Shown here piece by piece: positions 25,465 through 37,840 of a stretch of DNA of 64,000 nt. The notes under the pieces are model-generated. The model worked only from the letters and a program-made list of their open reading frames with translations, searched no databases and had not been told where the DNA came from. This stretch comes from Legionella quateirensis (lineage in GTDB: Bacteria; Pseudomonadota; Gammaproteobacteria; Legionellales; Legionellaceae): contig NZ_LNYR01000012.1 of NCBI RefSeq assembly GCF_001467955.1, forward strand, positions 216,325-280,324. The letters run 5' to 3'. Position numbers and translations under genes: made by a program. The stretch's first letter is position 1, and every line of letters begins with the position of its first letter.

Positions 25465-26034
25465 TTATTTGGATGGTTCCACAAGAAACTGACTAACGCC
25501 TATGCCGCGCGGCAAATTTAGTGAGGGTGCACGGACAATCAACATCGTTACCATACTATTTTGCTGTACATATTCACTACGACTTTGGTAAGTAATCAAG
25601 AGAGGTATTTGCACTCGCCAGGAATAAACGCCATCCAACAAACCCTTCTGTAGAATAACAGGTGCTCGAGTTGCTACTGCTGATACAATTAATTTCTTCG
25701 ATTGCACAACCTTTTCGTTTCCAGATTCTTTTAATGATTTTAAAAATAGACTATACCCTTGTTCTGTAAAAAAAGAAGATAAGTGTTGCAATTGTGTTTT
25801 TTGATTCTGAAAATTATAGCTAAATGCCGAAACAGCTGCTTCATTTGCCCAAACAAGTACCGCAACATCTGATTGATTTGCTTTGGTTAAGTCATCATTT
25901 TGTAATGAACATGGGCATGATTTATTCATGGAGGCGTCACTGTTATTTGATGCTGGCAATTGAGCAGTAACTGCCCATGTGGCCAGACAAAGGCCCCAAC
26001 AAAATATCCCTAACGTAATTGATTTAATTTTCAT
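25465..26034 (-). CDS. Secreted DotI/IcmL-like protein
   Basis: About 189 residues. Start at 26034 follows a GAGGA site and gives a clear signal peptide (M-K-I-K-S-I-T-L-G-I-F-C-W-G-L). The mature domain resembles the periplasmic part of DotI/IcmL: W-A-N-E-A-A-V-S-A-F-S-Y-N-F near residue 70, then F-F-T-E-Q-G-Y, and V-P-L-L-type strands ending N-S-M-V-T-M-L-I-V-R. Real DotI has a transmembrane anchor and sits in the Dot/Icm inner-membrane complex; this copy is an orphan with a cleavable signal and a C-P-C motif. IcmL-like paralogues are common in Legionella and their role is unknown. Confidence 0.75.
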   Translation of the reverse strand: MKIKSITLGIFCWGLCLATWAVTAQLPASNNSDASMNKSCPCSLQNDDLTKANQSDVAVLVWANEAAVSAFSYNFQNQKTQLQHLSSFFTEQGYSLFLKSLKESGNEKVVQSKKLIVSAVATRAPVILQKGLLDGVYSWRVQIPLLITYQSRSEYVQQNSMVTMLIVRAPSLNLPRGIGVSQFLVEPSK

Positions 26035-26076
26035 ATGAATTTCCTCATCAGCTGCAATATTGCTCTGTGAAAGCAT

Positions 26077-26737
26077 ATTGAAAACAAAAAGATCTGCACG
26101 GTGATTGTCTCTGTCCAGGCCTGCAAGTCAGAAATTTACGGACAGTTCTTGACTACGTTAACATCATTCTTCAAAAAACAATTCCGGGATGATCTTTCCT
26201 CGTAATAAATCCATATCGTTGCAATATCCTTAAGGTTTGTAAGCATTTTATGGGAAATACTACCTATTTTGCTTTCTAAGGTGAATTTTTGGCAAGCCTG
26301 CATTCTAACCAATACCCGTTTTCCCAGTCAAATTTTTCGACCATATATTAACCAAACTATTGATAAATTTAACACAACCGGTTAGCGTTGCCTTCATCTT
26401 TTTTTCAGGATGAAAATCCATGAGCGGTAGTGAGCGTAGCTGGTCCGCCAAGCCCAGTAACCAGAATTAGAGGTCCGGCCCCGATCTTGGGAAAAAGGTA
26501 TCAAATCTCGAATGGTTCAAATCTTATGCGAGCGTCCCAATATCACTTTAGCAATTTTATGACTAGAAAAAGTTTACAACTAATTTTAATCAACGCGTGT
26601 GCCTATCCTAGCAAAATTTTTTGCCCACAAAATGTAAAGTAATTTACCGTCAATATCTTTCATTGGGATTAATTTATCTTCCTCTTCAGTCGAAGAATAT
26701 GCCAGTCTCAAAAACGATCATTTTGTGAAAGTGATTT
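26077..26737. other. Intergenic region without a convincing gene
   Basis: About 660 bases between the IcmL-like gene and the kinase-like gene. A higher-GC patch at 26410-26500 stands out against the AT-rich background and may be a scrap of a lost gene, but neither strand gives a recognisable protein. Short frames here look like chance. Confidence 0.4.
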
Positions 26738-26760
26738 GCCGGGCTAATTGTTAGCCCGGC
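26738..26760 (-). terminator. Hairpin containing the stop codon of the kinase-like gene
   Basis: Perfect 10-base arms GCCGGGCTAA and TTAGCCCGGC around a 3-base loop. Read on the minus strand, the stem begins in the last codons and the TAA stop (26751-26753) lies inside it. There is no long T-run afterwards. The strong stem suggests a terminator or 3'-end stabiliser. Confidence 0.65.
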
Positions 26761-27980
26761 CTTGCTGAATTGTCTGAGAAATCTAATAATATATCAGAGG
26801 TTGTTTGCCTGTTTTTGCAAATACCCATATCAAAAAAACCTATCCCACAAAGGGCTGTTGCAATTCCAATACCCGTCACTACTAATCCTGTTACACCTAA
26901 AGTTGCAGAATTAAGCACTATAAATGAGATAGCTAAAGCGGCAATCCCTACAACGCCAATAAAACCACTTAAGACTATCATACTAATATCCATCGTTGAC
27001 AAAGAAGATGTTTCTGTTGTTTGATAGGATTGTACATCAGAGTGTTTAGTTGATGAGTGTTTTGTAAAACTTTTATGAAGTTCATCGTTCTCAGTTTCTA
27101 TAATCTCCTTTTTACTGTTAAGCACTTCTATATAAGCATCTCGCCTGGTCGTGAGAACTGTGTAAATATTATCTCTAGCTTTTTGAGATAAATTAGGAAT
27201 CTTCTCATTGAAAATAACTGAATGAAGAGCCTCATTGGATAATGTGCTTACTCGCTCCATACCATCGATAACTTGCCTAGGAGAACTATATTGAAATATC
27301 TCAGTGTTTTTACCACGATCTCCCCAGTAAAAAAATCCACTCTCGCCTTTTAATAATTTAGTTAAATTAGTTAAATATTGTTTAAACCCATATCCTGAGG
27401 AATCATTATAATTACAGTACCCTGGATCAATTTTAACAAGTTGGCAGTATTCATCATATTCGACTAATCCTACATTTTGTAAGGTGTTGCCCACTGCATC
27501 CCAATCTCCTAGAAAAGCAAATACTGCAACATTTTCATAAAGGCCAATAATTGGTTTATTCTGATTATTACGGGTATGTTTTGCTAAAACATATTGTTTA
27601 GGAAAGCTTTCCATGTGCGTCTTTGTATCAAAAACTATTATCCTATCCTTTGCAGTTAATTTTCCTCCCATCCAAATCAATAAATCTTTGTAACCAGGTT
27701 CAATACGAGAGACTAAAATAGAATATTTTCCTTTTTCATCTGGAAGAATATACGTTTTAGGAACTTTTACCCCACATAACTCCAATAGGTCATAACTTAA
27801 TTTCTCTAACGCACAATTTTCTTCCGCATTGAAGTTTTGAAATTTTTTCAAAGCAAAATTTTTATGTTCATTAGATTTTGTTTTTTTAACAGTAATAATT
27901 GGTGTTGAATTACCGCCCACGAGTTGTTGCTTTGTATCCTTAAATCGCTTTCTCGGCAGAATTATATTTTTTTGGGTCAT
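26751..27980 (-). CDS. Kinase-like effector candidate with C-terminal membrane hairpin
   Basis: A 409-residue protein. Residues 40-240 have the order of a HipA/PI3-PI4-kinase-like fold: A-L-E-K-L-S-Y-D-L-L-E-L-C-G-V near 57, S-I-L-V-S-R-I near 87, then a catalytic-loop-like G-D-W-D-A-V-G-N-T-L-Q-N-V-G near 158 and V-K-I-D-P-G near 182 in the place of a metal-binding Asp. Two hydrophobic helices at about 330-385 would form a membrane hairpin, and there is no signal peptide. This layout (soluble enzyme plus late hairpin) is common among Dot/Icm effectors that anchor in host membranes. Kinase activity and translocation are inference. Confidence 0.65.
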   Translation of the reverse strand: MTQKNIILPRKRFKDTKQQLVGGNSTPIITVKKTKSNEHKNFALKKFQNFNAEENCALEKLSYDLLELCGVKVPKTYILPDEKGKYSILVSRIEPGYKDLLIWMGGKLTAKDRIIVFDTKTHMESFPKQYVLAKHTRNNQNKPIIGLYENVAVFAFLGDWDAVGNTLQNVGLVEYDEYCQLVKIDPGYCNYNDSSGYGFKQYLTNLTKLLKGESGFFYWGDRGKNTEIFQYSSPRQVIDGMERVSTLSNEALHSVIFNEKIPNLSQKARDNIYTVLTTRRDAYIEVLNSKKEIIETENDELHKSFTKHSSTKHSDVQSYQTTETSSLSTMDISMIVLSGFIGVVGIAALAISFIVLNSATLGVTGLVVTGIGIATALCGIGFFDMGICKNRQTTSDILLDFSDNSARPG

Positions 27981-28094: not shown

Positions 28095-31000
28095 TTAATC
28101 CCCTTTTGCGGGCGGCAAGTCGATTATTTTTAGGGTGTACATATCCATTAAACATTTATAAATAAATGCCTTATTGATACTTGGTAAATCGGAATTTGAG
28201 CGCAGTTTTACTAAGTTACAAAATTGTGAATTATCTAGTTTTGTTTCCTGCTCAATATCTCCGGGTTTTTCCCATTTGTAAATGATATGCAAGGGTGAGT
28301 ATTTATTTTTTATACCTGTTAATCGTTCCAAGCGTTTGGTAAATTCATGATACCATTCTTCATAATGTTCAATTCTCTCTAATTTATAGCCTAATTGTTC
28401 TATCCAATTAATAATGACATCAAAGTTTACTGAACTATTTCCTTTTGGATTAGTAACAAGGTAGGTAGCATGCCCCGTTGCTGCAATTAATACATCATCT
28501 GCTATGATGTTTGCAATAAAGTCAACTGGGAGACCATCAAAAGAAGGTTTAAGGCTTTTTTCATTGGCAACTTGATAAAATGAATCAGGTGCTATTCCTG
28601 TAATTATTAGTCCTGCTATTAATCGGGTAAAAAAATCTTCGGCATTTATTTCACCGGAATATGTACTATGGGCGAGAATCATTCCACAACGGAATATATG
28701 TACAGGAAGATTAAACTCCTCACTGAAATTTTTTAGTAAAACCTCCCCTGCCCATTTGCTGGTTGCATACCCCTCTGCATAACTTCTTCCGTTATAACGA
28801 ATTGGCCATTGTTTGCGAATATCTTCTGTTTCTAAAATAATAGAGCGATCGTGTAATCCTCTGGAAACTGCAACACTGGAAATAAAACTTATTCGCTTCA
28901 ATTTATTTTTAATTGCAAAACGAATGACTTCCACTGTTCCCATTACGTTAGTTTCAAATAATTGCTCGTAGGAAAATACATGATTTACAAGTGCTCCATT
29001 GTGCAAAACCATATCGACTTCAGTTGCCAATAAATTATATATTTCATCACTTAAACCAAAGTTCGGCGAGGTTAAATCTGCAGCATAGACAATGAGATGT
29101 TTTTGGGCTAGTTGGCTAAAGCGATCTTTAAGTGTTGATTCACTGTGTTGAAAACAATGTAACATTCGATCACGGGCCTGGATGTCATCTTGTGCTCTAA
29201 CGAAACATATTAATGTTCCACCATTAATTGATAACCTCTCTAATAAAGCCAGTGCTAGAAATCGTCCCAGATAACCATTTGCACCTGTTAATAATACAAT
29301 GGAACGTTGTTCCACTTTTTTTTCTTTCAATAATTGTTTAGCATGTTCTAGTTCATGGGCATTAAAAAATGTCGACAACTTTAAATCACTAGCAAACAGT
29401 TTAATATCTTCTGGTGTGTTTGCTTTATATGGGTGTACATCTGAAAAAGAAATTGCATGCGTTTTGATACTCGCTGCTGTGCCTTGACGTTTATTGTTCA
29501 CATCTTTGATTAAACTTTTTATTCTGTAAGTAGGATTTAAAACGAGACTAACGGGTATTGAAACTGAATAAATATTTTTAATCATATGTGTCAATCTTAC
29601 AGCATCCAATGAATCGCCACCTAATTCAACAAAACTGGAATTGCCAAATTCACCATTTTGTACACCAAGAATGGCGCAGATCATTTGTTCTGTACTTGAA
29701 TCTGTATGCTCTACCCTGACTAGCTCTCCAAGTTGCTTTTGTTCAATGTGCTCATACAGTTCTTCCAGTGATTTTTTATATTTTTTCTTTAAATTGGTTC
29801 GTGCTAATTTATTACTTTCTGTTATCAATTGATTTTCTTGAGAAAATGGTTCCATTTCCACGATTAAGTCTAATGGGATTTCATAAGATCGTAGCTTTGC
29901 GGATTTGGCAATTGAATGAATCTCCTGAAGCAGGATTTGTTTCATATGCAGTGTATCTGGAGGTAAACCTTGTTCAACGAGCTTCTCTTTTATAAGACTG
30001 ATATTGGGTACTACAACAGATAATAGATAAGAGCGCAGACTACTTCCATAGAGGTATATTTGATTAATTAATCTGCCGCCACTTGAAAAAATATGCTCTA
30101 AACGCAACAAAGTAACAAATTCACCATTTCCTAATTTAATTACATTTTTTACCCTATCGATCAAAAACAGGTTGTTAGGTGCGTGTTCTTCAACAATATC
30201 ACCTGTTTTAATATATCCATCTGCATCAAATAAATCTGCAGTCGCACTCGGATCTTGATAGTAGCCAATCACAGCGCGATTGGTTTTCATATATAACTCA
30301 CCACGGGGATAAGGTTTATCCGTGGTGAAATAATTGAGTTCAGGTACGCTCACCAGTTTATAATCTAGTACATTTTGAGGTGATGTTTGATTATTTAATA
30401 GCAGAATACCTAGTTCCGTAGAACCATAGACATCAATCACGGGTATATCAAAACACCGCTTTAAAAAACTCATTACTTCAGGTGAAGTCGGGGCTGATGC
30501 TGTAATGGCAATAGACAGTCGGTCACCTAAAATTTTGTATTTCATTTCAGATATTATTTCATTTTCTACATCTAACCTTTTGGAATTTTTAGTGGTTTGC
30601 AAACGATTACTTACATTAATTTGAAAATTCTGATAAATCATTTCAGAAATTCGTGGAATGAGATATAAAACAGTGGGTCTTACAAGAAGAATGTCTTCAA
30701 AAAAAGTAGACATATCTGATTCTAAAGTAAAATAAGTAATTCCTCCCAGCATAAAAGAATTTATAACAATCATTCGTCCAAACATATGATTTAGCGGCAT
30801 AAAATTAAGTGAAATTGTAGGAATATCAGGATCATAATTATAAAATCCAGGTTTACCCCATAATTCTCTCCATGCTTTTTCTGTGATCATTGCACCTTTG
30901 GGTACACCGGTACTTCCTGAAGTGTAAACCAGTGTTACAAGTTGATCTGCCCCTTTTTGTGGAAGGATTTTTTCCAAAGCAACAGTTTGTTTTCCCAAAC

Positions 31001-31562
31001 TCTCTAAATCATCCAAGGTCAGTATGTGACAATTTATTTTTTTGTTTCTAAACATTGTCCGCATTGTATTGATCAGCTCGGATTGTTCGTCATCTTCTAA
31101 ATGACAGTCGATCACAATAATGCTGTTCACTGATGAGCAATGCGTTACTGCATTACAAATCAAATTTAATTGTTTTAAACTGGCAACCAAACATCTCATA
31201 TTGGTATCTATAACAATTTTTGTCAGTTCTTGTTCTCGCATATTTGTTTGTAATGGAACAGAGATAGCACTTAGATAGAGACAAGACAGTTCAGCTAAAA
31301 CAAACTCGGGACTACCGAATGCGCAAATACCCACAAAATCATTTGGACCCACAAGATTTGAATTATTCCATCCAGTAGCAATGTATGATATTCGATGCCA
31401 AACTTGCTTATAGTTTAGAGTTTCAAATTCGGGTAAATAATTTATTTTATTTCTATGATTAATTTTTATGAGTTCTGTTTTACGAAAACCAAGTGCGGGC
31501 TTCATTTCATAATTTTTACAATAATGTTCAATTAGCTCAATACAACTTAGTGTAGTTTCCAT
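28095..31562 (-). CDS. Carboxylic acid reductase (adenylation-carrier-reductase)
   Basis: A 1155-residue three-domain enzyme of the carboxylic acid reductase type. The adenylation domain (1-620) has the A3 motif Y-T-S-G-S-T-G-V-P-K-G near residue 213 and Y-G-S-T-E-L-G. A carrier domain has the phosphopantetheine serine in E-L-G-G-D-S-L-D-A near 648. The NADPH thioester-reductase domain has L-T-G-A-N-G-Y-L-G near 758 and the catalytic Y-A-T-S-K near 930. CARs reduce an acid to the aldehyde with ATP and NADPH and need a phosphopantetheinyl transferase, which is not in the window. Length equals Nocardia/Mycobacterium CARs. Last gene of a four-gene minus-strand cassette, 152 bases after the FAD enzyme. 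The substrate is unknown. Confidence 0.88.
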   Translation of the reverse strand: METTLSCIELIEHYCKNYEMKPALGFRKTELIKINHRNKINYLPEFETLNYKQVWHRISYIATGWNNSNLVGPNDFVGICAFGSPEFVLAELSCLYLSAISVPLQTNMREQELTKIVIDTNMRCLVASLKQLNLICNAVTHCSSVNSIIVIDCHLEDDEQSELINTMRTMFRNKKINCHILTLDDLESLGKQTVALEKILPQKGADQLVTLVYTSGSTGVPKGAMITEKAWRELWGKPGFYNYDPDIPTISLNFMPLNHMFGRMIVINSFMLGGITYFTLESDMSTFFEDILLVRPTVLYLIPRISEMIYQNFQINVSNRLQTTKNSKRLDVENEIISEMKYKILGDRLSIAITASAPTSPEVMSFLKRCFDIPVIDVYGSTELGILLLNNQTSPQNVLDYKLVSVPELNYFTTDKPYPRGELYMKTNRAVIGYYQDPSATADLFDADGYIKTGDIVEEHAPNNLFLIDRVKNVIKLGNGEFVTLLRLEHIFSSGGRLINQIYLYGSSLRSYLLSVVVPNISLIKEKLVEQGLPPDTLHMKQILLQEIHSIAKSAKLRSYEIPLDLIVEMEPFSQENQLITESNKLARTNLKKKYKKSLEELYEHIEQKQLGELVRVEHTDSSTEQMICAILGVQNGEFGNSSFVELGGDSLDAVRLTHMIKNIYSVSIPVSLVLNPTYRIKSLIKDVNNKRQGTAASIKTHAISFSDVHPYKANTPEDIKLFASDLKLSTFFNAHELEHAKQLLKEKKVEQRSIVLLTGANGYLGRFLALALLERLSINGGTLICFVRAQDDIQARDRMLHCFQHSESTLKDRFSQLAQKHLIVYAADLTSPNFGLSDEIYNLLATEVDMVLHNGALVNHVFSYEQLFETNVMGTVEVIRFAIKNKLKRISFISSVAVSRGLHDRSIILETEDIRKQWPIRYNGRSYAEGYATSKWAGEVLLKNFSEEFNLPVHIFRCGMILAHSTYSGEINAEDFFTRLIAGLIITGIAPDSFYQVANEKSLKPSFDGLPVDFIANIIADDVLIAATGHATYLVTNPKGNSSVNFDVIINWIEQLGYKLERIEHYEEWYHEFTKRLERLTGIKNKYSPLHIIYKWEKPGDIEQETKLDNSQFCNLVKLRSNSDLPSINKAFIYKCLMDMYTLKIIDLPPAKGD

Positions 31563-31714
31563 TAGCCTACTCTATTAAAATTGGCTCTATGTGCCTTTGC
31601 GGTAAAAGCCTAAATTGAGTATAGTACCCTCGATTGAAAATTGAAAATGATACAAAAATTACCTAGTGAAGTAGTAAAAGTGGCTTGGGAGTATGAATGA
31701 CATAACGCCCAGAT

Positions 31715-32836
31715 TCAGTCGTCATTTTGCGAGATAGAATATCTATTGGGTGATAATTTATTAGCAATATCATTCTTAACCGAACCCTGTTGAATGATTA
31801 GGTCAAAGGCAAGCTGCGAGAAAAATGGAGCAAGTTTATTACCGTATCCACCAAAACCAGTGTACCAAAATAATCCCTTTTTATTGGCATCAAAACCAAT
31901 CAAAGGAAGTGAATCTTCGGTGATGGTTTTTACGCCCACCCAAGTCGATCTTAAGAAAGGCATTGGCAATGTGACTTGTTTGAGTAAATCAAGCATGTGT
32001 TCAATGGCTTTTTTATCAGGCACCGAAGATGAGTTGAGATTGTTTATCGCCTTTTTTGAGCTGTTGGAGGCCAAAATAAACTCATTGTTTTGGTGCAACT
32101 TGGGTTTTATGAAAAAATTCATCGCATCGTCAGTGATGGCAGGGATATAGTTGGCTTCCTCTGTTAACCCATCAAAACCAATCAAAGCACAGTCTTGACG
32201 TTGCAGATGAACATATGGATTTTTAAATAATTGATTGGTCCATGGTCCGGTTGCATTAACCACTATGGGCGAGCTGTAGGTAGTTGATGCTGTTTTTATC
32301 TGCCAGCAGTTTTGTTGTTTCTGAATGTTTAGGACGGATTCAAACGGATGAAGATCCAGGTTTTTACAACTCTGGAAGGCATATAAGTATTCCTTTTTTA
32401 TGCATTCTATTTCCAGATCGAAATAGTTTTTTTCAAAATAGAGGGTTTTGAATTGATTAAAATCAATTAAACGCTTTGTGGCCTCAATGGTTTCTGAAAC
32501 AAAGCCATAGTTAGATAGAGCATTAACTGAAGATATAGGAATGAGGTCTTTGTAGTTGGGGTCGCTCATCTGCCCGGAGGGAAACAAAGAGGTAATCAGG
32601 CGACCACGTGGTTTGATAATGTTTGGATTTAGGTTGTTGTAGAAATTGATACACTCTTGCAGATAGGGGGTAAAGAGTCCTGAAGAATAAGACGATGAAA
32701 ACCCTGCTAGCGATTGCGATGTGGTGCCTCCAAAAAAATCTTGTTGTTCAATAAGAATCACTTTGTGGGATTGCATGCATCGATAGGCCAATGAAAGCCC
32801 GGCTATGCCACCACCAATGATTATGATATCGTGCAT
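31715..32836 (-). CDS. FAD-dependent amine/amino-acid oxidase (DAO family)
   Basis: A 373-residue flavoprotein of the D-amino-acid oxidase/glycine oxidase family. It opens with the FAD motif I-I-I-G-G-G-I-A-G-L-S-L-A-Y and carries V-V-N-A-T-G-P-W near residue 192 and the C-terminal F-W-Y-T-G-F-G-G-Y-G that closes the FAD site. No signal peptide was seen. It lies 70 bases after the GHMP kinase gene and before the carboxylic acid reductase on the same strand, which suggests it oxidises an amino-acid intermediate of the same route. The reaction cannot be read from sequence. Confidence 0.85.
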   Translation of the reverse strand: MHDIIIIGGGIAGLSLAYRCMQSHKVILIEQQDFFGGTTSQSLAGFSSSYSSGLFTPYLQECINFYNNLNPNIIKPRGRLITSLFPSGQMSDPNYKDLIPISSVNALSNYGFVSETIEATKRLIDFNQFKTLYFEKNYFDLEIECIKKEYLYAFQSCKNLDLHPFESVLNIQKQQNCWQIKTASTTYSSPIVVNATGPWTNQLFKNPYVHLQRQDCALIGFDGLTEEANYIPAITDDAMNFFIKPKLHQNNEFILASNSSKKAINNLNSSSVPDKKAIEHMLDLLKQVTLPMPFLRSTWVGVKTITEDSLPLIGFDANKKGLFWYTGFGGYGNKLAPFFSQLAFDLIIQQGSVKNDIANKLSPNRYSISQNDD

Positions 32837-32906
32837 GAGCCTCTCCCTTGTATAAACTATGAACAGTCAGGGTGAGCAACTTTTTGGGTAAACGTCCAAC
32901 AAGTTC

Positions 32907-33782
32907 CTAATCTTTAATTCCAAAATCGGTTCGAAAGATCAGCGGTTTCAACCCTTGTTTAATCAAATAACTTTTAATGTAATCCACTTTGTTTTGAAGC
33001 TCATGGTCTTTAAGGGAAATATAGACTCCAGCGCAAGAACCACTATGAGAACCAATTACCCCATAAACAACTTTGTCATCCATCAGTTGTTTTAACTGTT
33101 TCACATATCGGTTCGGATTGCGTTTTTGGTTCATAATGAAACTTGTGGTTGTGATAGACCCAAATAATTCCTCATCTCCATGCTCACAGGAATAGATGAA
33201 ATCTTTCAATAAATTGGCATAGCGTTCCTGTTCACGCTTAGAATAATACACTGTCTTATTGTATTGAATTGTATCGACGATTTTGTCATCAAATACCCCC
33301 ACAATCACCATGTCAGAAATAATGTTTTTAATAAAATAAATCGGTTCAGAAGTATAATGATTAAACACCAGTAATCCCTGGTATAAAGTACTGTCTGAGG
33401 GTTCTATTTGCGATAAAATTTGTCCACATAGTTCATTAGAATACTTATTTCCAGCCATCAGATTTAACGCACGAAAAAAGGCAACCAGGTCACAAGTTGA
33501 ACTTCCGAGCCCAACTCCGCGAGGTATCACACTGTCAAACATTATTCTATTGTCGATTGTAGTGTGCGCCAGAGAATTAAATAACTCTAAAAACTGTGCT
33601 TTCTTGAACTCCAGAATTTGGTCTTTAACGAATATGTGTTTGAATATACGACAGATACATCGCACAGTGATTGGACAAGACACTAAAAAGGGAGTGTTGG
33701 ATGGCAACCATCCTTGCACAAGTTCTCCGAAATGAGCGTAAGATACACCTTCATAGTATTCGTCATTAGAGATCCTGTCCAT
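32907..33782 (-). CDS. GHMP kinase resembling PduX (L-threonine kinase)
   Basis: A 291-residue GHMP-superfamily kinase. The N-terminal A-H-F-G-E-L-V-Q-G-W matches the G-E-L-V-Q-G motif typical of PduX-type threonine kinases. The ATP loop is P-R-G-V-G-L-G-S-S-T-C-D near residue 86. The C-terminal G-S-H-S-G-S-C-A-G-V is the GHMP motif 3. PduX makes O-phospho-L-threonine for cobalamin side-chain synthesis, but no cobalamin gene is nearby. It overlaps the threonine-synthase-like gene by 17 bases, so the two products likely work in sequence. Homoserine or another hydroxy-amino acid are alternative substrates. Confidence 0.8.
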   Translation of the reverse strand: MDRISNDEYYEGVSYAHFGELVQGWLPSNTPFLVSCPITVRCICRIFKHIFVKDQILEFKKAQFLELFNSLAHTTIDNRIMFDSVIPRGVGLGSSTCDLVAFFRALNLMAGNKYSNELCGQILSQIEPSDSTLYQGLLVFNHYTSEPIYFIKNIISDMVIVGVFDDKIVDTIQYNKTVYYSKREQERYANLLKDFIYSCEHGDEELFGSITTTSFIMNQKRNPNRYVKQLKQLMDDKVVYGVIGSHSGSCAGVYISLKDHELQNKVDYIKSYLIKQGLKPLIFRTDFGIKD

Positions 33783-34905
33783 GATATAATCCCCCAGTCA
33801 ACATTGCGACACATCTATCGCCAGGTTGAATCCAGCCCGTGTTTTTTAATTTCTCAAAAGCAGCCACTGTAGCGGCAGAAGTATGACATGCATTGACGTA
33901 TTTTTTTGCCAGAAAATTAAAACTGTGTTCTATCTCGTCCTGGGTTACCATACAAAAACAGCCCTTGGTTTCATCGACCACCTGTTTGACATAAGGATAT
34001 GATTTTTTAGGATTGCTGCGTAAAATTGCTTTGGCTGATCCCACGGGATCTTCTGGAATATAAGATTCGATGATCTCATCTGCCCCTTCAGTATAGGAGA
34101 GACACATGGGTTGGCAGGTATCTTGTTGTACACAAACAATTTTGGGGATTTTCTTGATAAAGCCTTGTTTATAAAGCAACTTTACGAGACTGTGAAACCC
34201 AATAATGCCCATACCACTGGAGACTGCTTGAATAAACACATCCACATCCCAATCCATTCGTAATAAACTTTCAAGGTATGAGGTTTTTAAACCTTCACGT
34301 CTGAAGGGATTAAAGAACCCTCCTTCATAAAAAATATGTTCTTTTTTAGAAAATTCCATGCAGGCCTCATCTGCAGCTGAGAGGTTATTTTCTGCTACAT
34401 GGACTGTTGCATAGGGATTGGTAAAATAAAGTCTTTGTGCATGAAGTGTTGATGCAAAAATATGAACTCGTAAGGCACCCTGAACTTGATTGGCCCAATA
34501 CATGTAGCTTGAGCCTGTGTTTCCCGAAGAAACCAAAGTAACTTCTTTGCAACCCAAGGCAATTAAACTGGGAACAGACATGACACATTGCCTGTATTTG
34601 GTACTGATACTGGGTAATACTCCTTCGTTCTTCCCATACAAGATGCCCTCACCTTCTACTAATGGAATCAAAGGAGTTTCTGTACAATCATAAAACGGAT
34701 GAAATAAAATCGGTAAAATTTTATGAAAACGCCAGATCCCGGAATAGCGCATGTCTATGGAAAACGCAGTATCTGGATAGTCGCAGGCGATGAGTCCATT
34801 GCACGCTTTACAATGAAAGTTGAGGCTTAAAGAATCCTCCTTGCCACATTTTAAACAAATAAATCGGCAGTCAGGGTTAAGTTGGACTTGTTTCATATCA
34901 TTCAT
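33766..34905 (-). CDS. Threonine-synthase-like PLP enzyme with N-terminal zinc ribbon
   Basis: About 379 residues, fold-type II PLP enzyme. The N-terminus has two Cys pairs, C-L-K-C near residue 17 and C-K-A-C near 30, as in zinc-ribbon threonine synthases. The likely PLP lysine is in S-I-S-T-K-Y-R, where threonine synthases have S-F-K-D-R. The phosphate-binding loop is S-S-G-N-T-G-S-S. The altered lysine motif argues against ordinary threonine synthesis. Start at 34905 follows AGAGG by 6 bases; the frame extends to a GTG at 34929 without a site. First gene of the cassette, overlapping the GHMP kinase. It probably acts on the O-phospho amino acid made by that kinase (elimination or replacement), which is inference. 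Confidence 0.82.
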   Translation of the reverse strand: MNDMKQVQLNPDCRFICLKCGKEDSLSLNFHCKACNGLIACDYPDTAFSIDMRYSGIWRFHKILPILFHPFYDCTETPLIPLVEGEGILYGKNEGVLPSISTKYRQCVMSVPSLIALGCKEVTLVSSGNTGSSYMYWANQVQGALRVHIFASTLHAQRLYFTNPYATVHVAENNLSAADEACMEFSKKEHIFYEGGFFNPFRREGLKTSYLESLLRMDWDVDVFIQAVSSGMGIIGFHSLVKLLYKQGFIKKIPKIVCVQQDTCQPMCLSYTEGADEIIESYIPEDPVGSAKAILRSNPKKSYPYVKQVVDETKGCFCMVTQDEIEHSFNFLAKKYVNACHTSAATVAAFEKLKNTGWIQPGDRCVAMLTGGLYHGQDL

Positions 34906-35236
34906 TGAACACCTCTTGATTAAAGGCACTAATCATGGATTTTTTGTACAAATACTGATGATTCAACATGTGCAATGTCTTGACTTATTTATTCAATCTC
35001 ATAGAGCCATAGTTTGTGTCATTCAGTACCCTATAGGGATCTCTAAATTAGTCTCTAAAAGTGGATAATTGAAACCTCAAAAAACTATTAAACTACCCTA
35101 AGTGTTGACCATGTTGTGCTTTTTTTCAAGACACTGCTCGACATAATCGATTCGTAGTGCCATCTCCTGTCAAATGCATTTAATATTATGTTCGCTCGGA
35201 CAGGATTCGCTTATTATATCGGTGAGATGTATCAGA
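34906..35236. other. Intergenic region upstream of the biosynthetic cassette
   Basis: About 330 bases that should hold the cassette promoter on the minus strand, but no convincing -35/-10 pair was found. A short minus-strand frame near 35103-35165 (reading M-A-L-R-I-D-Y-V-E-Q-C) has purines directly before its ATG but is only 21 codons and was not called. T-rich stretches are present. Confidence 0.35.
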
Positions 35237-36349
35237 CTATTGGTTTTGAGGTTTTTTATTTAGCAGACGATTAAATGTATCCAGACAGACGGGTTTATTT
35301 TCTCTAGTCTGAAAATAACTGAGTGGTGTAAGCAGTGCAATATTCATATTTAAAGCAGGACAAAGTGTTACCCACTCTGCAAAACATTGTTCATTTATTT
35401 CATATTTGCCGTATCCCGTTTCTGCATTACCCAGTTTGCAAAAAGCAATAGATGCCATCGCATTTTCAAAGGTTGAATTTTGATTAGTCCAGATGTATTG
35501 CTTATCAATATGAAACAAATATCGAGTACCACAGAATATTAGCGCCATCTTTAATCCAGTTTGGTATCGTTCATTAAATTCAGTTTTGTAAATATCTTCT
35601 TGACGAATACGTTCCTCCAATTGTGATAATCGTCCTTGTGCAATATCCTGATAAAACCAAATCATTCGGCGAATGGCAATAGCAGTATTCAAAGTTACTC
35701 TGTCAGGAGTTGCATCACCATATTTTCCTTCCAAAAAATCCTTGCTATGAGTCGAACCATGAGCCAACTTGAAGGCAACAAACAACCTGTCTACTGACAG
35801 TTGAGTTAAGCCAAAGTTAGTTTGATCATTAAATCTGACTCCGTTTTTCGTTGTTAGTTTTAACAAATTATACCAACGCTGCAAATTGGTATCAGGTCTG
35901 CTTGTGGATATTGAGTGGCCACTCATGTCAGTGACATTGGTAGGATCACCACTGCTTTCTTTTAGAATCATGGCAAGTACATGGGCATATTTTAAAGGCA
36001 AATTTTCTTTGAAATAATGGTGTTGTGCATTGGCCATATGCTGATATATTACAAAGTTCTGAAAAACAAGCATCCTGAGACTATAGTCTATTGCATTACA
36101 TTTCGGGTCTTGCTCTTCAGCCATCACCTCAGCAACATGTTCGGTCAGGCTTTCAACCTGTTCTTCATCAGGCAAACCAACGATATCAGGGAGCCAACCA
36201 TTTTCATCGGGGTCTATTTCCTCTGGTAAACTGAATTGTTCCATAACTGACTGAGGGGCATCATCTCCAAAAAGTGGAAAAGTAAATCCCATCAATAAAG
36301 CAAAATAAACACACAAAGAAATTTTATTGTACTGTTTTTTCAAGTTCAT
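35237..36349 (-). CDS. Exported protein with lysozyme/transglycosylase-like region
   Basis: A 370-residue protein with a Sec signal peptide (basic N-terminus, hydrophobic core at about 9-28). Residues 120-190 resemble the SLT lysozyme fold: A-H-V-L-A-M-I-L-K-E-S-S-G-D-P near residue 125 offers a candidate catalytic Glu before Ser, and N-F-G-L-T-Q-L-S near 180 resembles the usual G-L-M-Q. The rest, including a Cys-containing C-terminal part, is unrecognised. It could be a periplasmic muramidase; the match is short. It diverges from the FAD monooxygenase gene, with a large palindrome between them. Confidence 0.6.
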   Translation of the reverse strand: MNLKKQYNKISLCVYFALLMGFTFPLFGDDAPQSVMEQFSLPEEIDPDENGWLPDIVGLPDEEQVESLTEHVAEVMAEEQDPKCNAIDYSLRMLVFQNFVIYQHMANAQHHYFKENLPLKYAHVLAMILKESSGDPTNVTDMSGHSISTSRPDTNLQRWYNLLKLTTKNGVRFNDQTNFGLTQLSVDRLFVAFKLAHGSTHSKDFLEGKYGDATPDRVTLNTAIAIRRMIWFYQDIAQGRLSQLEERIRQEDIYKTEFNERYQTGLKMALIFCGTRYLFHIDKQYIWTNQNSTFENAMASIAFCKLGNAETGYGKYEINEQCFAEWVTLCPALNMNIALLTPLSYFQTRENKPVCLDTFNRLLNKKPQNQ

Positions 36350-36622: not shown

Positions 36623-37840
36623 ATGTTAACTAATCCATTAAAAAATACACGAATTCTGATTTCTGGTGCAAGCATAGCAGGGCCAGCTCTAGCCTATTGG
36701 CTACAACGCTATGGTTTTACAGTAACAGTTATAGAACAGTCTCAGCAATTAAGAACTGGGGGATACAAAGTTGATACTCGAGGAAAATGCATCGATGTTC
36801 TTAAAGCGATGGGATTATATGAACAAGTCAAGAAATGTCATGTTCATACAAAATCAGCGATATTCGTTGATGATGAAGGCAACACTGTTATGGAAATGCC
36901 CGCTTCTGAATTGGGAATGCGAGAAAAAGATGATGTAGAACTTCTAAGAGGAGATTTATCAAATCTTCTTTATGAAGCATCGCGACATACCTGTGATTAT
37001 ATATTGGGTGACTCCATTAAATCCATCAATCAAACTGATGATGAAATTGAAGTTCAATTTGTACATGGACAATCCAGAACATTTGATCTGCTTGTTGGGG
37101 CTGATGGTATCCATTCAAATGTGCGCAGGCAAATATTTGGTGATGAACAGAAGTTTTTATATGATCTCGGACACTATTATTATGGTATTTACAGCGTTGA
37201 AAATTATTTGGATTTCGCAAATGAAGAAGTTTTTTACTCGAAAAATAATATGCAGATTAACATGTCATTTACTAATAAACAGGATGCTTTTAAAGTAATT
37301 TATCTCTTTCAAGATACCCAATTAATCTTTAATTATCGAGATGTTGAACAGCACAAGGCGACACTTAATAAACACTACCAACACGGTAAATGGGAGACTC
37401 CTGCTTTATTAAAAGCCATGGATAGCGCTTCTGATTTTTATTTTGACGCAGTAAGACAAGTCCGGATGCAGAGTTGGTCTAAAGGCCGAGTTGTCTTGGT
37501 TGGCGATGCGGCTTATAGCCCTGCATTAACTTCAGGCCAAGGAAGTAGTATTGCTATTGTAGGAGCCTATGTGTTGGCCGGAGAGCTGTTTGCTGCTGGT
37601 GGAAATTATGAAATCGCTTTTGGTTCTTATCAACAACTCATGAGCAATTATGTAAAATTGAATCAAGACTTAGGTGAAGCCGTGATGCAGTTCATACTTC
37701 CGAAAAGCAAATCTCGAATTTCTGGATGGATAAATAAATTGAGCTCCTGGGTATTGCCAAAGGATTATGCGATAAAAAAACTTCGACAACAATTTCTTAT
37801 GGCATCAAACGGAATTAAACTTAAAGACTATGCCATATAG
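36623..37840 (+). CDS. FAD-dependent monooxygenase (TetX/PHBH class A type)
   Basis: A 405-residue class A flavin monooxygenase. The N-terminal FAD motif is I-S-G-A-S-I-A-G-P-A-L-A-Y. The D-G motif is L-V-G-A-D-G-I-H-S-N-V-R-R near residue 155, and the G-D motif is V-L-V-G-D-A-A-Y-S-P near 293. It most resembles TetX-like and related antibiotic- or aromatic-hydroxylating enzymes; the substrate cannot be told. No signal peptide. It converges with the 29-residue peptide gene, separated by a hairpin at 37891-37911. Confidence 0.88.
   Translation: MLTNPLKNTRILISGASIAGPALAYWLQRYGFTVTVIEQSQQLRTGGYKVDTRGKCIDVLKAMGLYEQVKKCHVHTKSAIFVDDEGNTVMEMPASELGMREKDDVELLRGDLSNLLYEASRHTCDYILGDSIKSINQTDDEIEVQFVHGQSRTFDLLVGADGIHSNVRRQIFGDEQKFLYDLGHYYYGIYSVENYLDFANEEVFYSKNNMQINMSFTNKQDAFKVIYLFQDTQLIFNYRDVEQHKATLNKHYQHGKWETPALLKAMDSASDFYFDAVRQVRMQSWSKGRVVLVGDAAYSPALTSGQGSSIAIVGAYVLAGELFAAGGNYEIAFGSYQQLMSNYVKLNQDLGEAVMQFILPKSKSRISGWINKLSSWVLPKDYAIKKLRQQFLMASNGIKLKDYAI

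What the first reader, a model, noticed from the sequence alone, without database searches (positions are those of the whole stretch)
28095..34905. Four-gene cassette that looks like an undescribed amino-acid-derived biosynthetic pathway
Seen: four minus-strand genes in order - threonine-synthase-like PLP enzyme, PduX-like GHMP kinase (17-base overlap), DAO-type FAD oxidase, full-length carboxylic acid reductase - with no cobalamin, threonine or other pathway genes around. Known: PduX phosphorylates threonine; threonine synthases eliminate phosphate from a phospho-amino acid; CARs reduce an acid to an aldehyde with a carrier-bound intermediate. Inference: the kinase activates a hydroxy-amino acid, the PLP enzyme eliminates or replaces the phosphate, the flavoenzyme oxidises the amine and the reductase makes an aldehyde. 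The PLP-lysine motif (S-T-K-Y-R instead of F-K-D-R) argues against normal threonine synthesis. I know of no named pathway with this set.
Basis: partly seen in the sequence, partly recalled or inferred. Interest (0 to 1): 0.87.

Follow-up and report, generated by a model that had tools for sequence, protein, structure and literature searches.

The report
Mobile four-gene amino-acid pathway in Legionella
Three Legionella species carry the same four enzyme genes in the same order, one of them at a different chromosomal place, and together they look like a small, undescribed pathway that turns an activated amino acid into an aldehyde, though the product is unknown.

Summary
The four genes are real, intact and in the order described. 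They behave as one inherited unit. In 143 family genomes, strong matches to PLP enzyme, kinase and oxidase occur only in the same 3; the reductase is in those 3 plus one 36% copy elsewhere. In L. moravica the unit sits at another locus, and the window's locus is empty there. dN/dS is 0.07-0.25. Ordinary threonine synthesis is disfavoured: the genome has its own thrB-thrC, and the PLP enzyme changes 29 of 71 positions conserved in 28 homologues. The kinase's nearest outside relatives mostly lie beside SbnA/cysteine-synthase-like enzymes, often with an argininosuccinate-lyase homologue, as in 2,3-diamino-acid pathways. The Legionella kinase is a long, separate branch, so this is analogy, not membership. 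Best reading: phosphorylation of serine or threonine, PLP elimination or replacement of phosphate, FAD oxidation, CAR reduction to an aldehyde. Substrate, step order and product are inferred. No structure prediction could be run.

The parts
33766..34905 (-). Threonine-synthase-fold PLP enzyme (379 aa from ATG 34905; longest ORF reaches GTG 34929)
   Evidence: PALP 96 bits; best NCBIfam PRK08197 122.2 bits, cut-off 303; 96% and 89% identical in L. bononiensis and L. moravica; start supported by conserved GAGGTG
32907..33782 (-). GHMP-fold small-molecule kinase, 291 aa, overlapping the PLP gene by 17 bases
   Evidence: GHMP_kinases_N 33.5 bits; among the 78 non-Legionella loci kept, at most 34% identity
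31715..32836 (-). DAO-family FAD oxidoreductase, 373 aa
   Evidence: PF01266 96 bits; distant to D-arginine dehydrogenase and glycine oxidase; Lys303 where these have Arg
28095..31562 (-). Carboxylic acid reductase: adenylation, carrier and reductase domains, 1155 aa
   Evidence: NF041592 1070.8 bits, cut-off 1300; solved CARs aligned over residues 16-1146; motifs at residues 213, 647, 760 and 932
34906..35133 (-). Conserved leader/promoter region upstream of the PLP gene
   Evidence: DNA similarity to the L. moravica cassette ends at 35133, to the L. bononiensis one at 35142; no Rfam match; folding no better than shuffles
31563..31714 (-). Gap before the CAR with a conserved TATACT block, a possible promoter of its own
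   Evidence: alignment; consensus match TTTTCA-18-TATACT at 31647-31618, 9 of 12 (such matches are no more frequent in the region than in shuffles)

Best explanation
A horizontally moving, four-gene biosynthetic cassette. Inferred scheme: the GHMP kinase phosphorylates a small hydroxy-amino acid, most likely L-threonine or L-serine. The threonine-synthase-fold PLP enzyme expels the phosphate and either adds a nucleophile at the beta carbon or releases the elimination product. The FAD enzyme oxidises a C-N bond of that product. The carboxylic acid reductase, armed by the cell's phosphopantetheinyl transferase, reduces a carboxyl group to an aldehyde. Shown: gene content, unity, change of place, purifying selection, intact CAR motifs. 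Inferred: all chemistry, step order and substrate.
For: PLP enzyme, kinase and DAO in the same 3 of 143 family genomes (two further weak PLP matches are other enzymes or fragments), CAR in those 3 plus one 36% copy. Same order in L. bononiensis and L. moravica; different flanks in L. moravica; shared DNA limited to about 28106-35133. The window's site is empty in L. moravica, with the HlyD-like gene and the gene at 35237-36349 about 50 bp apart. dN/dS 0.07-0.25 for the four genes. Kinase relatives: of 78 non-Legionella loci kept, 64 hold an SbnA/CysK-like PALP, 42 of them also an argininosuccinate-lyase homologue; three PLP partners scanned resemble the SbnA model, below its cut-off. Own thrB-thrC. 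One phosphopantetheinyl transferase match in each of 3 genomes (compare PMC5126622, abstract and passages seen).
Against: No activity, substrate or product is known. The kinase is on a very long branch of its own, so its substrate may differ. Its PLP partner is not of the SbnA type, and no lyase is present. In 15 of the 64 loci counted the PALP is only 29-33% identical and on the opposite strand (my count), so may be unrelated; 14 of 78 have neither PALP nor lyase. dN/dS is higher for DAO and CAR than for kinase and PLP enzyme, so the two pairs may be less tightly coupled. The CAR may have its own promoter. No outside cassette with all four was seen.
Confidence: 0.5

Rival explanations
1. 2,3-diamino-acid route with oxidative release: the kinase makes O-phospho-Ser/Thr, the PLP enzyme adds an amino acid as amine nucleophile (as SbnA does with glutamate), and the FAD enzyme, in place of a lyase or SbnB, cleaves the secondary amine to free the diamino acid; the CAR then makes the aldehyde.
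For: Kinase kin sit with SbnA-like enzymes; SbnA uses O-phosphoserine and glutamate (PMC12414870, abstract and passages seen); DAO-family relatives include a sarcosine oxidase and dimethylglycine dehydrogenase, which act on secondary or tertiary amines (chemistry recalled).
Against: The PLP enzyme is threonine-synthase-like, not SbnA-like; the CAR scores 1070.8 bits on the CAR model against 62.2 on the amino-acid adenylation model; no relative that I examined shows an oxidase in place of the lyase (the 22 loci with PALP but no lyase were not all annotated).
Confidence: 0.2
2. Spare threonine (or threonine-like) synthesis: homoserine kinase plus threonine synthase paralogues.
For: The PLP enzyme's best models and best solved relatives are threonine synthases.
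Against: Own thrB-thrC at another place; of 71 positions conserved in at least 24 of 28 homologues, 29 are changed and 5 are gaps, including F110T, G114Q, G381L, L382Y, K383H; all threonine-synthase models far below cut-off; DAO and CAR unexplained.
Confidence: 0.08
3. Sulfonate or thiol replacement: the PLP enzyme works like archaeal cysteate synthase (a threonine-synthase descendant that uses O-phosphoserine and sulfite; lineage and reaction recalled), feeding a sulfonated or thio amino acid to oxidase and reductase.
For: Cysteate synthase model TIGR03844 at 87 bits, cut-off 324.9, and solved cysteate synthase 9k3c at E 7e-4.
Against: Scores below those of threonine synthases; no sulfite or sulfonate genes among the 13 flanking genes scanned.
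Confidence: 0.1
4. Four genes thrown together on a mobile segment without a shared pathway.
For: Different dN/dS in the two halves, possible separate CAR promoter.
Against: Order, 17-base overlap and all-or-none presence kept over a dS of about 0.7-1.1 between lineages at different loci.
Confidence: 0.12

Closest known systems
2,3-diaminobutyrate modules of uridyl-peptide and lipopeptide clusters (PacQ/S/T, Dab genes; names recalled)
   Same: GHMP-family kinase encoded beside a fold-type-II PLP enzyme, in several loci next to peptide-synthetase genes.
   Different: There the PLP enzyme is SbnA/cysteine-synthase-like, with argininosuccinate-lyase and ATP-grasp partners; here a threonine-synthase-like enzyme, an FAD oxidase and a CAR.
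SbnI-SbnA-SbnB of staphyloferrin B (PMC12414870, abstract and passages seen)
   Same: Serine kinase, then a PLP enzyme that expels phosphate.
   Different: SbnI is not a GHMP kinase and SbnB not a DAO flavoenzyme (both recalled); no CAR.
Threonine synthase (ThrC) and cysteate synthase
   Same: PALP fold, catalytic lysine, Gly-Asn loop and the P-x-R-x-x-G-x-K-T stretch.
   Different: Below all curated cut-offs; many near-invariant residues changed.
Carboxylic acid reductases of Nocardia, Mycobacterium and Segniliparus (organisms of the solved chains recalled)
   Same: Full-length domain order and motifs.
   Different: Below the NF041592 cut-off; sits beside an amino-acid-kinase-like/PLP pair.

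Membership tests
Threonine synthase | Curated score of a threonine-synthase model | tested here: not met
   Best 122.2 bits against 303
Threonine synthase | Near-invariant residues of the family kept | tested here: not met
   Of 71 positions 37 kept, 29 changed, 5 gaps, against 28 homologues found by similarity, functions untested
Threonine synthase | Makes threonine from O-phosphohomoserine | not testable with these tools
   A separate thrB-thrC exists
2,3-diamino-acid module | GHMP kinase of this family | tested here: inconclusive
   Homologous, at most 34% identity among the loci kept, own long branch
2,3-diamino-acid module | SbnA-type PLP enzyme | tested here: not met
   No SbnA model among the 7 families matched by the window enzyme
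2,3-diamino-acid module | Argininosuccinate-lyase homologue or SbnB | tested here: not met
   None among the four cassette genes
PduX L-threonine kinase | Cobalamin or Pdu context | tested here: not met
   None among the 13 flanking genes scanned
PduX L-threonine kinase | Phosphorylates L-threonine | not testable with these tools
   -
Carboxylic acid reductase | Adenylation, carrier and reductase domains with motifs | tested here: met
Carboxylic acid reductase | Curated NF041592 cut-off | tested here: not met
   1070.8 against 1300 bits, nearly end-to-end match
Carboxylic acid reductase | Phosphopantetheinyl transferase available | tested here: met
   One PF01648 match in each of 3 genomes
DAO-type amino-acid oxidase | DAO domain | tested here: met
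   PF01266 96 bits
DAO-type amino-acid oxidase | Carboxylate-binding arginine (role recalled) | tested here: not met
   Lys303 in all three species where D-arginine dehydrogenase and glycine oxidase have Arg; the sarcosine oxidase chain 1y56_B has Tyr there, so the Arg is not universal

The most novel reading that the evidence does not exclude
A self-contained 7-kb pathway new to biochemistry: phospho-activation of serine or threonine, beta-replacement by a threonine-synthase-derived (not SbnA-type) PLP enzyme, flavin oxidation of the new C-N bond and reduction to an amino-acid-derived aldehyde, traded among Legionella as one unit.
Probability: 0.3. Interest if true: 0.75.

Novelty: new variant of a known kind. 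Interest (0 to 1): 0.55.

Why it matters
If true, it adds a compact route from a common amino acid to a reactive aldehyde and shows a threonine-synthase fold recruited for secondary metabolism. It would also give a small, clearly bounded cassette for a genus in which many biosynthetic clusters are predicted but few products are known (PMC5126622, abstract and passages seen).

Tried and rejected
Considered and rejected: housekeeping threonine synthesis (own thrB-thrC); a cobalamin role (no such genes among the 13 flanking genes scanned); the neighbouring FAD_binding_3 monooxygenase at 36623-37840 and the gene at 35237-36349 as members (beside the cassette in L. bononiensis but not in L. moravica; the second is in 37 of 143 genomes). 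Led nowhere: viral contigs with the PLP enzyme (no relative); DNA similarity to plasmids (none); class and phylum samples for the PLP enzyme (best 30% identity); Rfam; leader folding (z -0.21); paper searches for the gene set (none; 51: one unrelated paper); PHROGs on four flanking proteins (weak hits of unknown function for one of four). The kinase tree did not place the Legionella branch and warned of long branches meeting; one row (L019) was labelled 'none' there although one search shows lyase-model matches.

Limits: the single genome-contig scan kept the best 80 of 315 confirmed loci; the other 235 were not seen, so a distant cassette could have been missed. It started from the kinase only. 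PLP relatives with another kinase were sought only in samples of 369 and 398 genomes (limits E 1e-12 and 1e-15) and in plasmids. The CAR search of the family scored only 5 first-look candidates per genome in the rows shown, at E 1e-40.

None is full length.

Full report
What is there. Four minus-strand genes fill 28095-34905 as described: CAR, DAO-type FAD oxidase, GHMP kinase and PALP enzyme, the last two overlapping by 17 bases. Pfam and NCBIfam agree with the names at family level. The CAR has its adenylation, carrier (LGGDSL) and reductase (GANGYLG, YATSKW) motifs and aligns with solved CARs over residues 16-1146.

One unit. In 143 genomes of the family the kinase is found in 3; the PLP enzyme strongly in the same 3, with two weak matches in other genera (E 4e-6 and 7e-4); the oxidase in the same 3 at E <= 1e-15; and the CAR, at E <= 1e-40, in those 3 plus one copy of 36% identity whose neighbours are different. 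Order and strand are kept; identities to the window are 96/89% (PLP), 93/82% (kinase), 80/69% (oxidase) and 85/69% (CAR). dN/dS over the three pairs is 0.07-0.09 for the PLP enzyme, 0.09-0.11 for the kinase, 0.20-0.25 for the oxidase and 0.20-0.24 for the CAR.

Mobility. In L. moravica the genes beside the cassette are different. DNA similarity between the two units runs from 28106 to 35133 with one break between oxidase and CAR. The window's own site is empty in L. moravica: the HlyD-like gene and the gene at 35237-36349 lie about 50 bp apart there. The cassette therefore occupies different places in the two lineages. No tRNA was found in 20000-45000. GC of the four genes is 34-40% against 36.8% for the window, so composition does not mark a foreign source.

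Not the threonine pathway. The genome has a thrC over its curated cut-off (247.1 against 167.1 bits), with a 313-aa gene overlapping it that I take for homoserine kinase from its sequence and place (not scored). The cassette's PLP enzyme reaches no curated cut-off. Against 28 homologues found by similarity, functions untested, 71 positions are conserved in at least 24; the window keeps 37, changes 29 and has gaps at 5. Changed positions include residues around the lysine (S107, I108, T110, Q114 for T, G, F, G) and the C-terminal L-Y-H (381-383) for G-L-K. The lysine (111), arginine 113, Gly-Asn 136-137 and the P-x-R-x-x-G-x-K-T stretch (208-216) are kept, so it should still be an active PLP enzyme (inference).

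Kin of the kinase. A scan of genome contigs of 84,980 species with a kinase alignment confirmed 315 loci and returned the best 80, two of them the Legionella ones. Of the other 78, 64 hold an SbnA/cysteine-synthase-like PALP, 42 of these also an argininosuccinate-lyase homologue; 14 hold neither (six of these loci are under 11 kb). None of the 78 holds a relative of the window's PLP enzyme or oxidase at E 1e-3; for the CAR, five show only partial matches of 39-60 bits. Three PLP partners were scanned (Sinorhizobium, Streptomyces and Paraburkholderia plasmids): the SbnA model is best for two and second for the fusion protein, each below its cut-off. In 15 of the 64 the PALP is weak (29-33%) and on the opposite strand (my count). 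One further kinase lies near a CobD/HisC-like gene. That related clusters make 2,3-diaminobutyrate (DABA) is from the literature: DABA from threonine and ammonia (PMC10714638, passages seen), and a mureidomycin gene homologous to npsG, proposed for DABA, whose mutant lost the antibiotic activity (PMC4572928, passages seen); the Pac and Dab gene names are recalled. In a tree of 87 kinases the three Legionella proteins form one branch of length 7.4 that joins no group. So the kin suggest a serine or threonine kinase, but do not prove it.

Oxidase and reductase. The oxidase is a distant DAO-family member; in all three species Lys303 stands where D-arginine dehydrogenase and glycine oxidase have Arg, while the sarcosine oxidase chain 1y56_B has Tyr; the Arg (recalled) binds the substrate carboxylate. 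The CAR scores far better on the CAR model (1070.8 bits) than on the general amino-acid adenylation model (62.2 bits), so it more likely acts on an acid without a free alpha-amino group; this would put it after the oxidase (inference). One phosphopantetheinyl transferase match occurs in each of the three genomes, in line with the single broad enzyme reported for the genus (PMC5126622, abstract and passages seen, supplement not).

Mechanism and doubt. Best reading: kinase, then PLP elimination or replacement of phosphate, then flavin oxidation, then reduction to an aldehyde. Only the gene facts are shown. The structure predictor was busy at each of 12 attempts (listed in Tried and rejected), so active sites were judged by alignment only. 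One paper names both Legionella and carboxylic acid reductase, on vanillin production (listing seen). The gene set was not found in print (no paper; one unrelated; 15 of 28 listed; 12 of 2,519 listed) gave no paper on it among the titles listed.

Noticed in passing
L028:2264-8879 and L039:1183-8948: Chloroflexi and Acidobacteriia MAGs hold a parallel cluster: the same kinase family with two PALP enzymes, an AMP ligase and a halogenase-like FAD enzyme (domains scanned in L028 only, L039 judged by eye).
   Followed up: partly
L031:7965-11870: In a Chitinophagaceae MAG the kinase lies among what look by eye like surface-polysaccharide genes, with a CobD/HisC-like gene nearby on the other strand.
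   Followed up: partly
L115:6222-11047: Another Legionellaceae genome (same genus as the window's) has a CAR (36% identical) next to an ORF that looks by eye like a condensation-type acyltransferase; the cassette kinase was not found in that genome.
   Followed up: no
L013, L014, L088, L095: Rhizobial plasmids and contigs carry the kinase with an SbnA-like enzyme and an ATP-grasp/lyase protein; in the two annotated records the kinase is called hypothetical.
   Followed up: no
window 25465-27980: Two ORFs between the secretion genes and the cassette; the longer has no Pfam family and the shorter no PHROGs family; L. bononiensis has other ORFs at that place.
   Followed up: no
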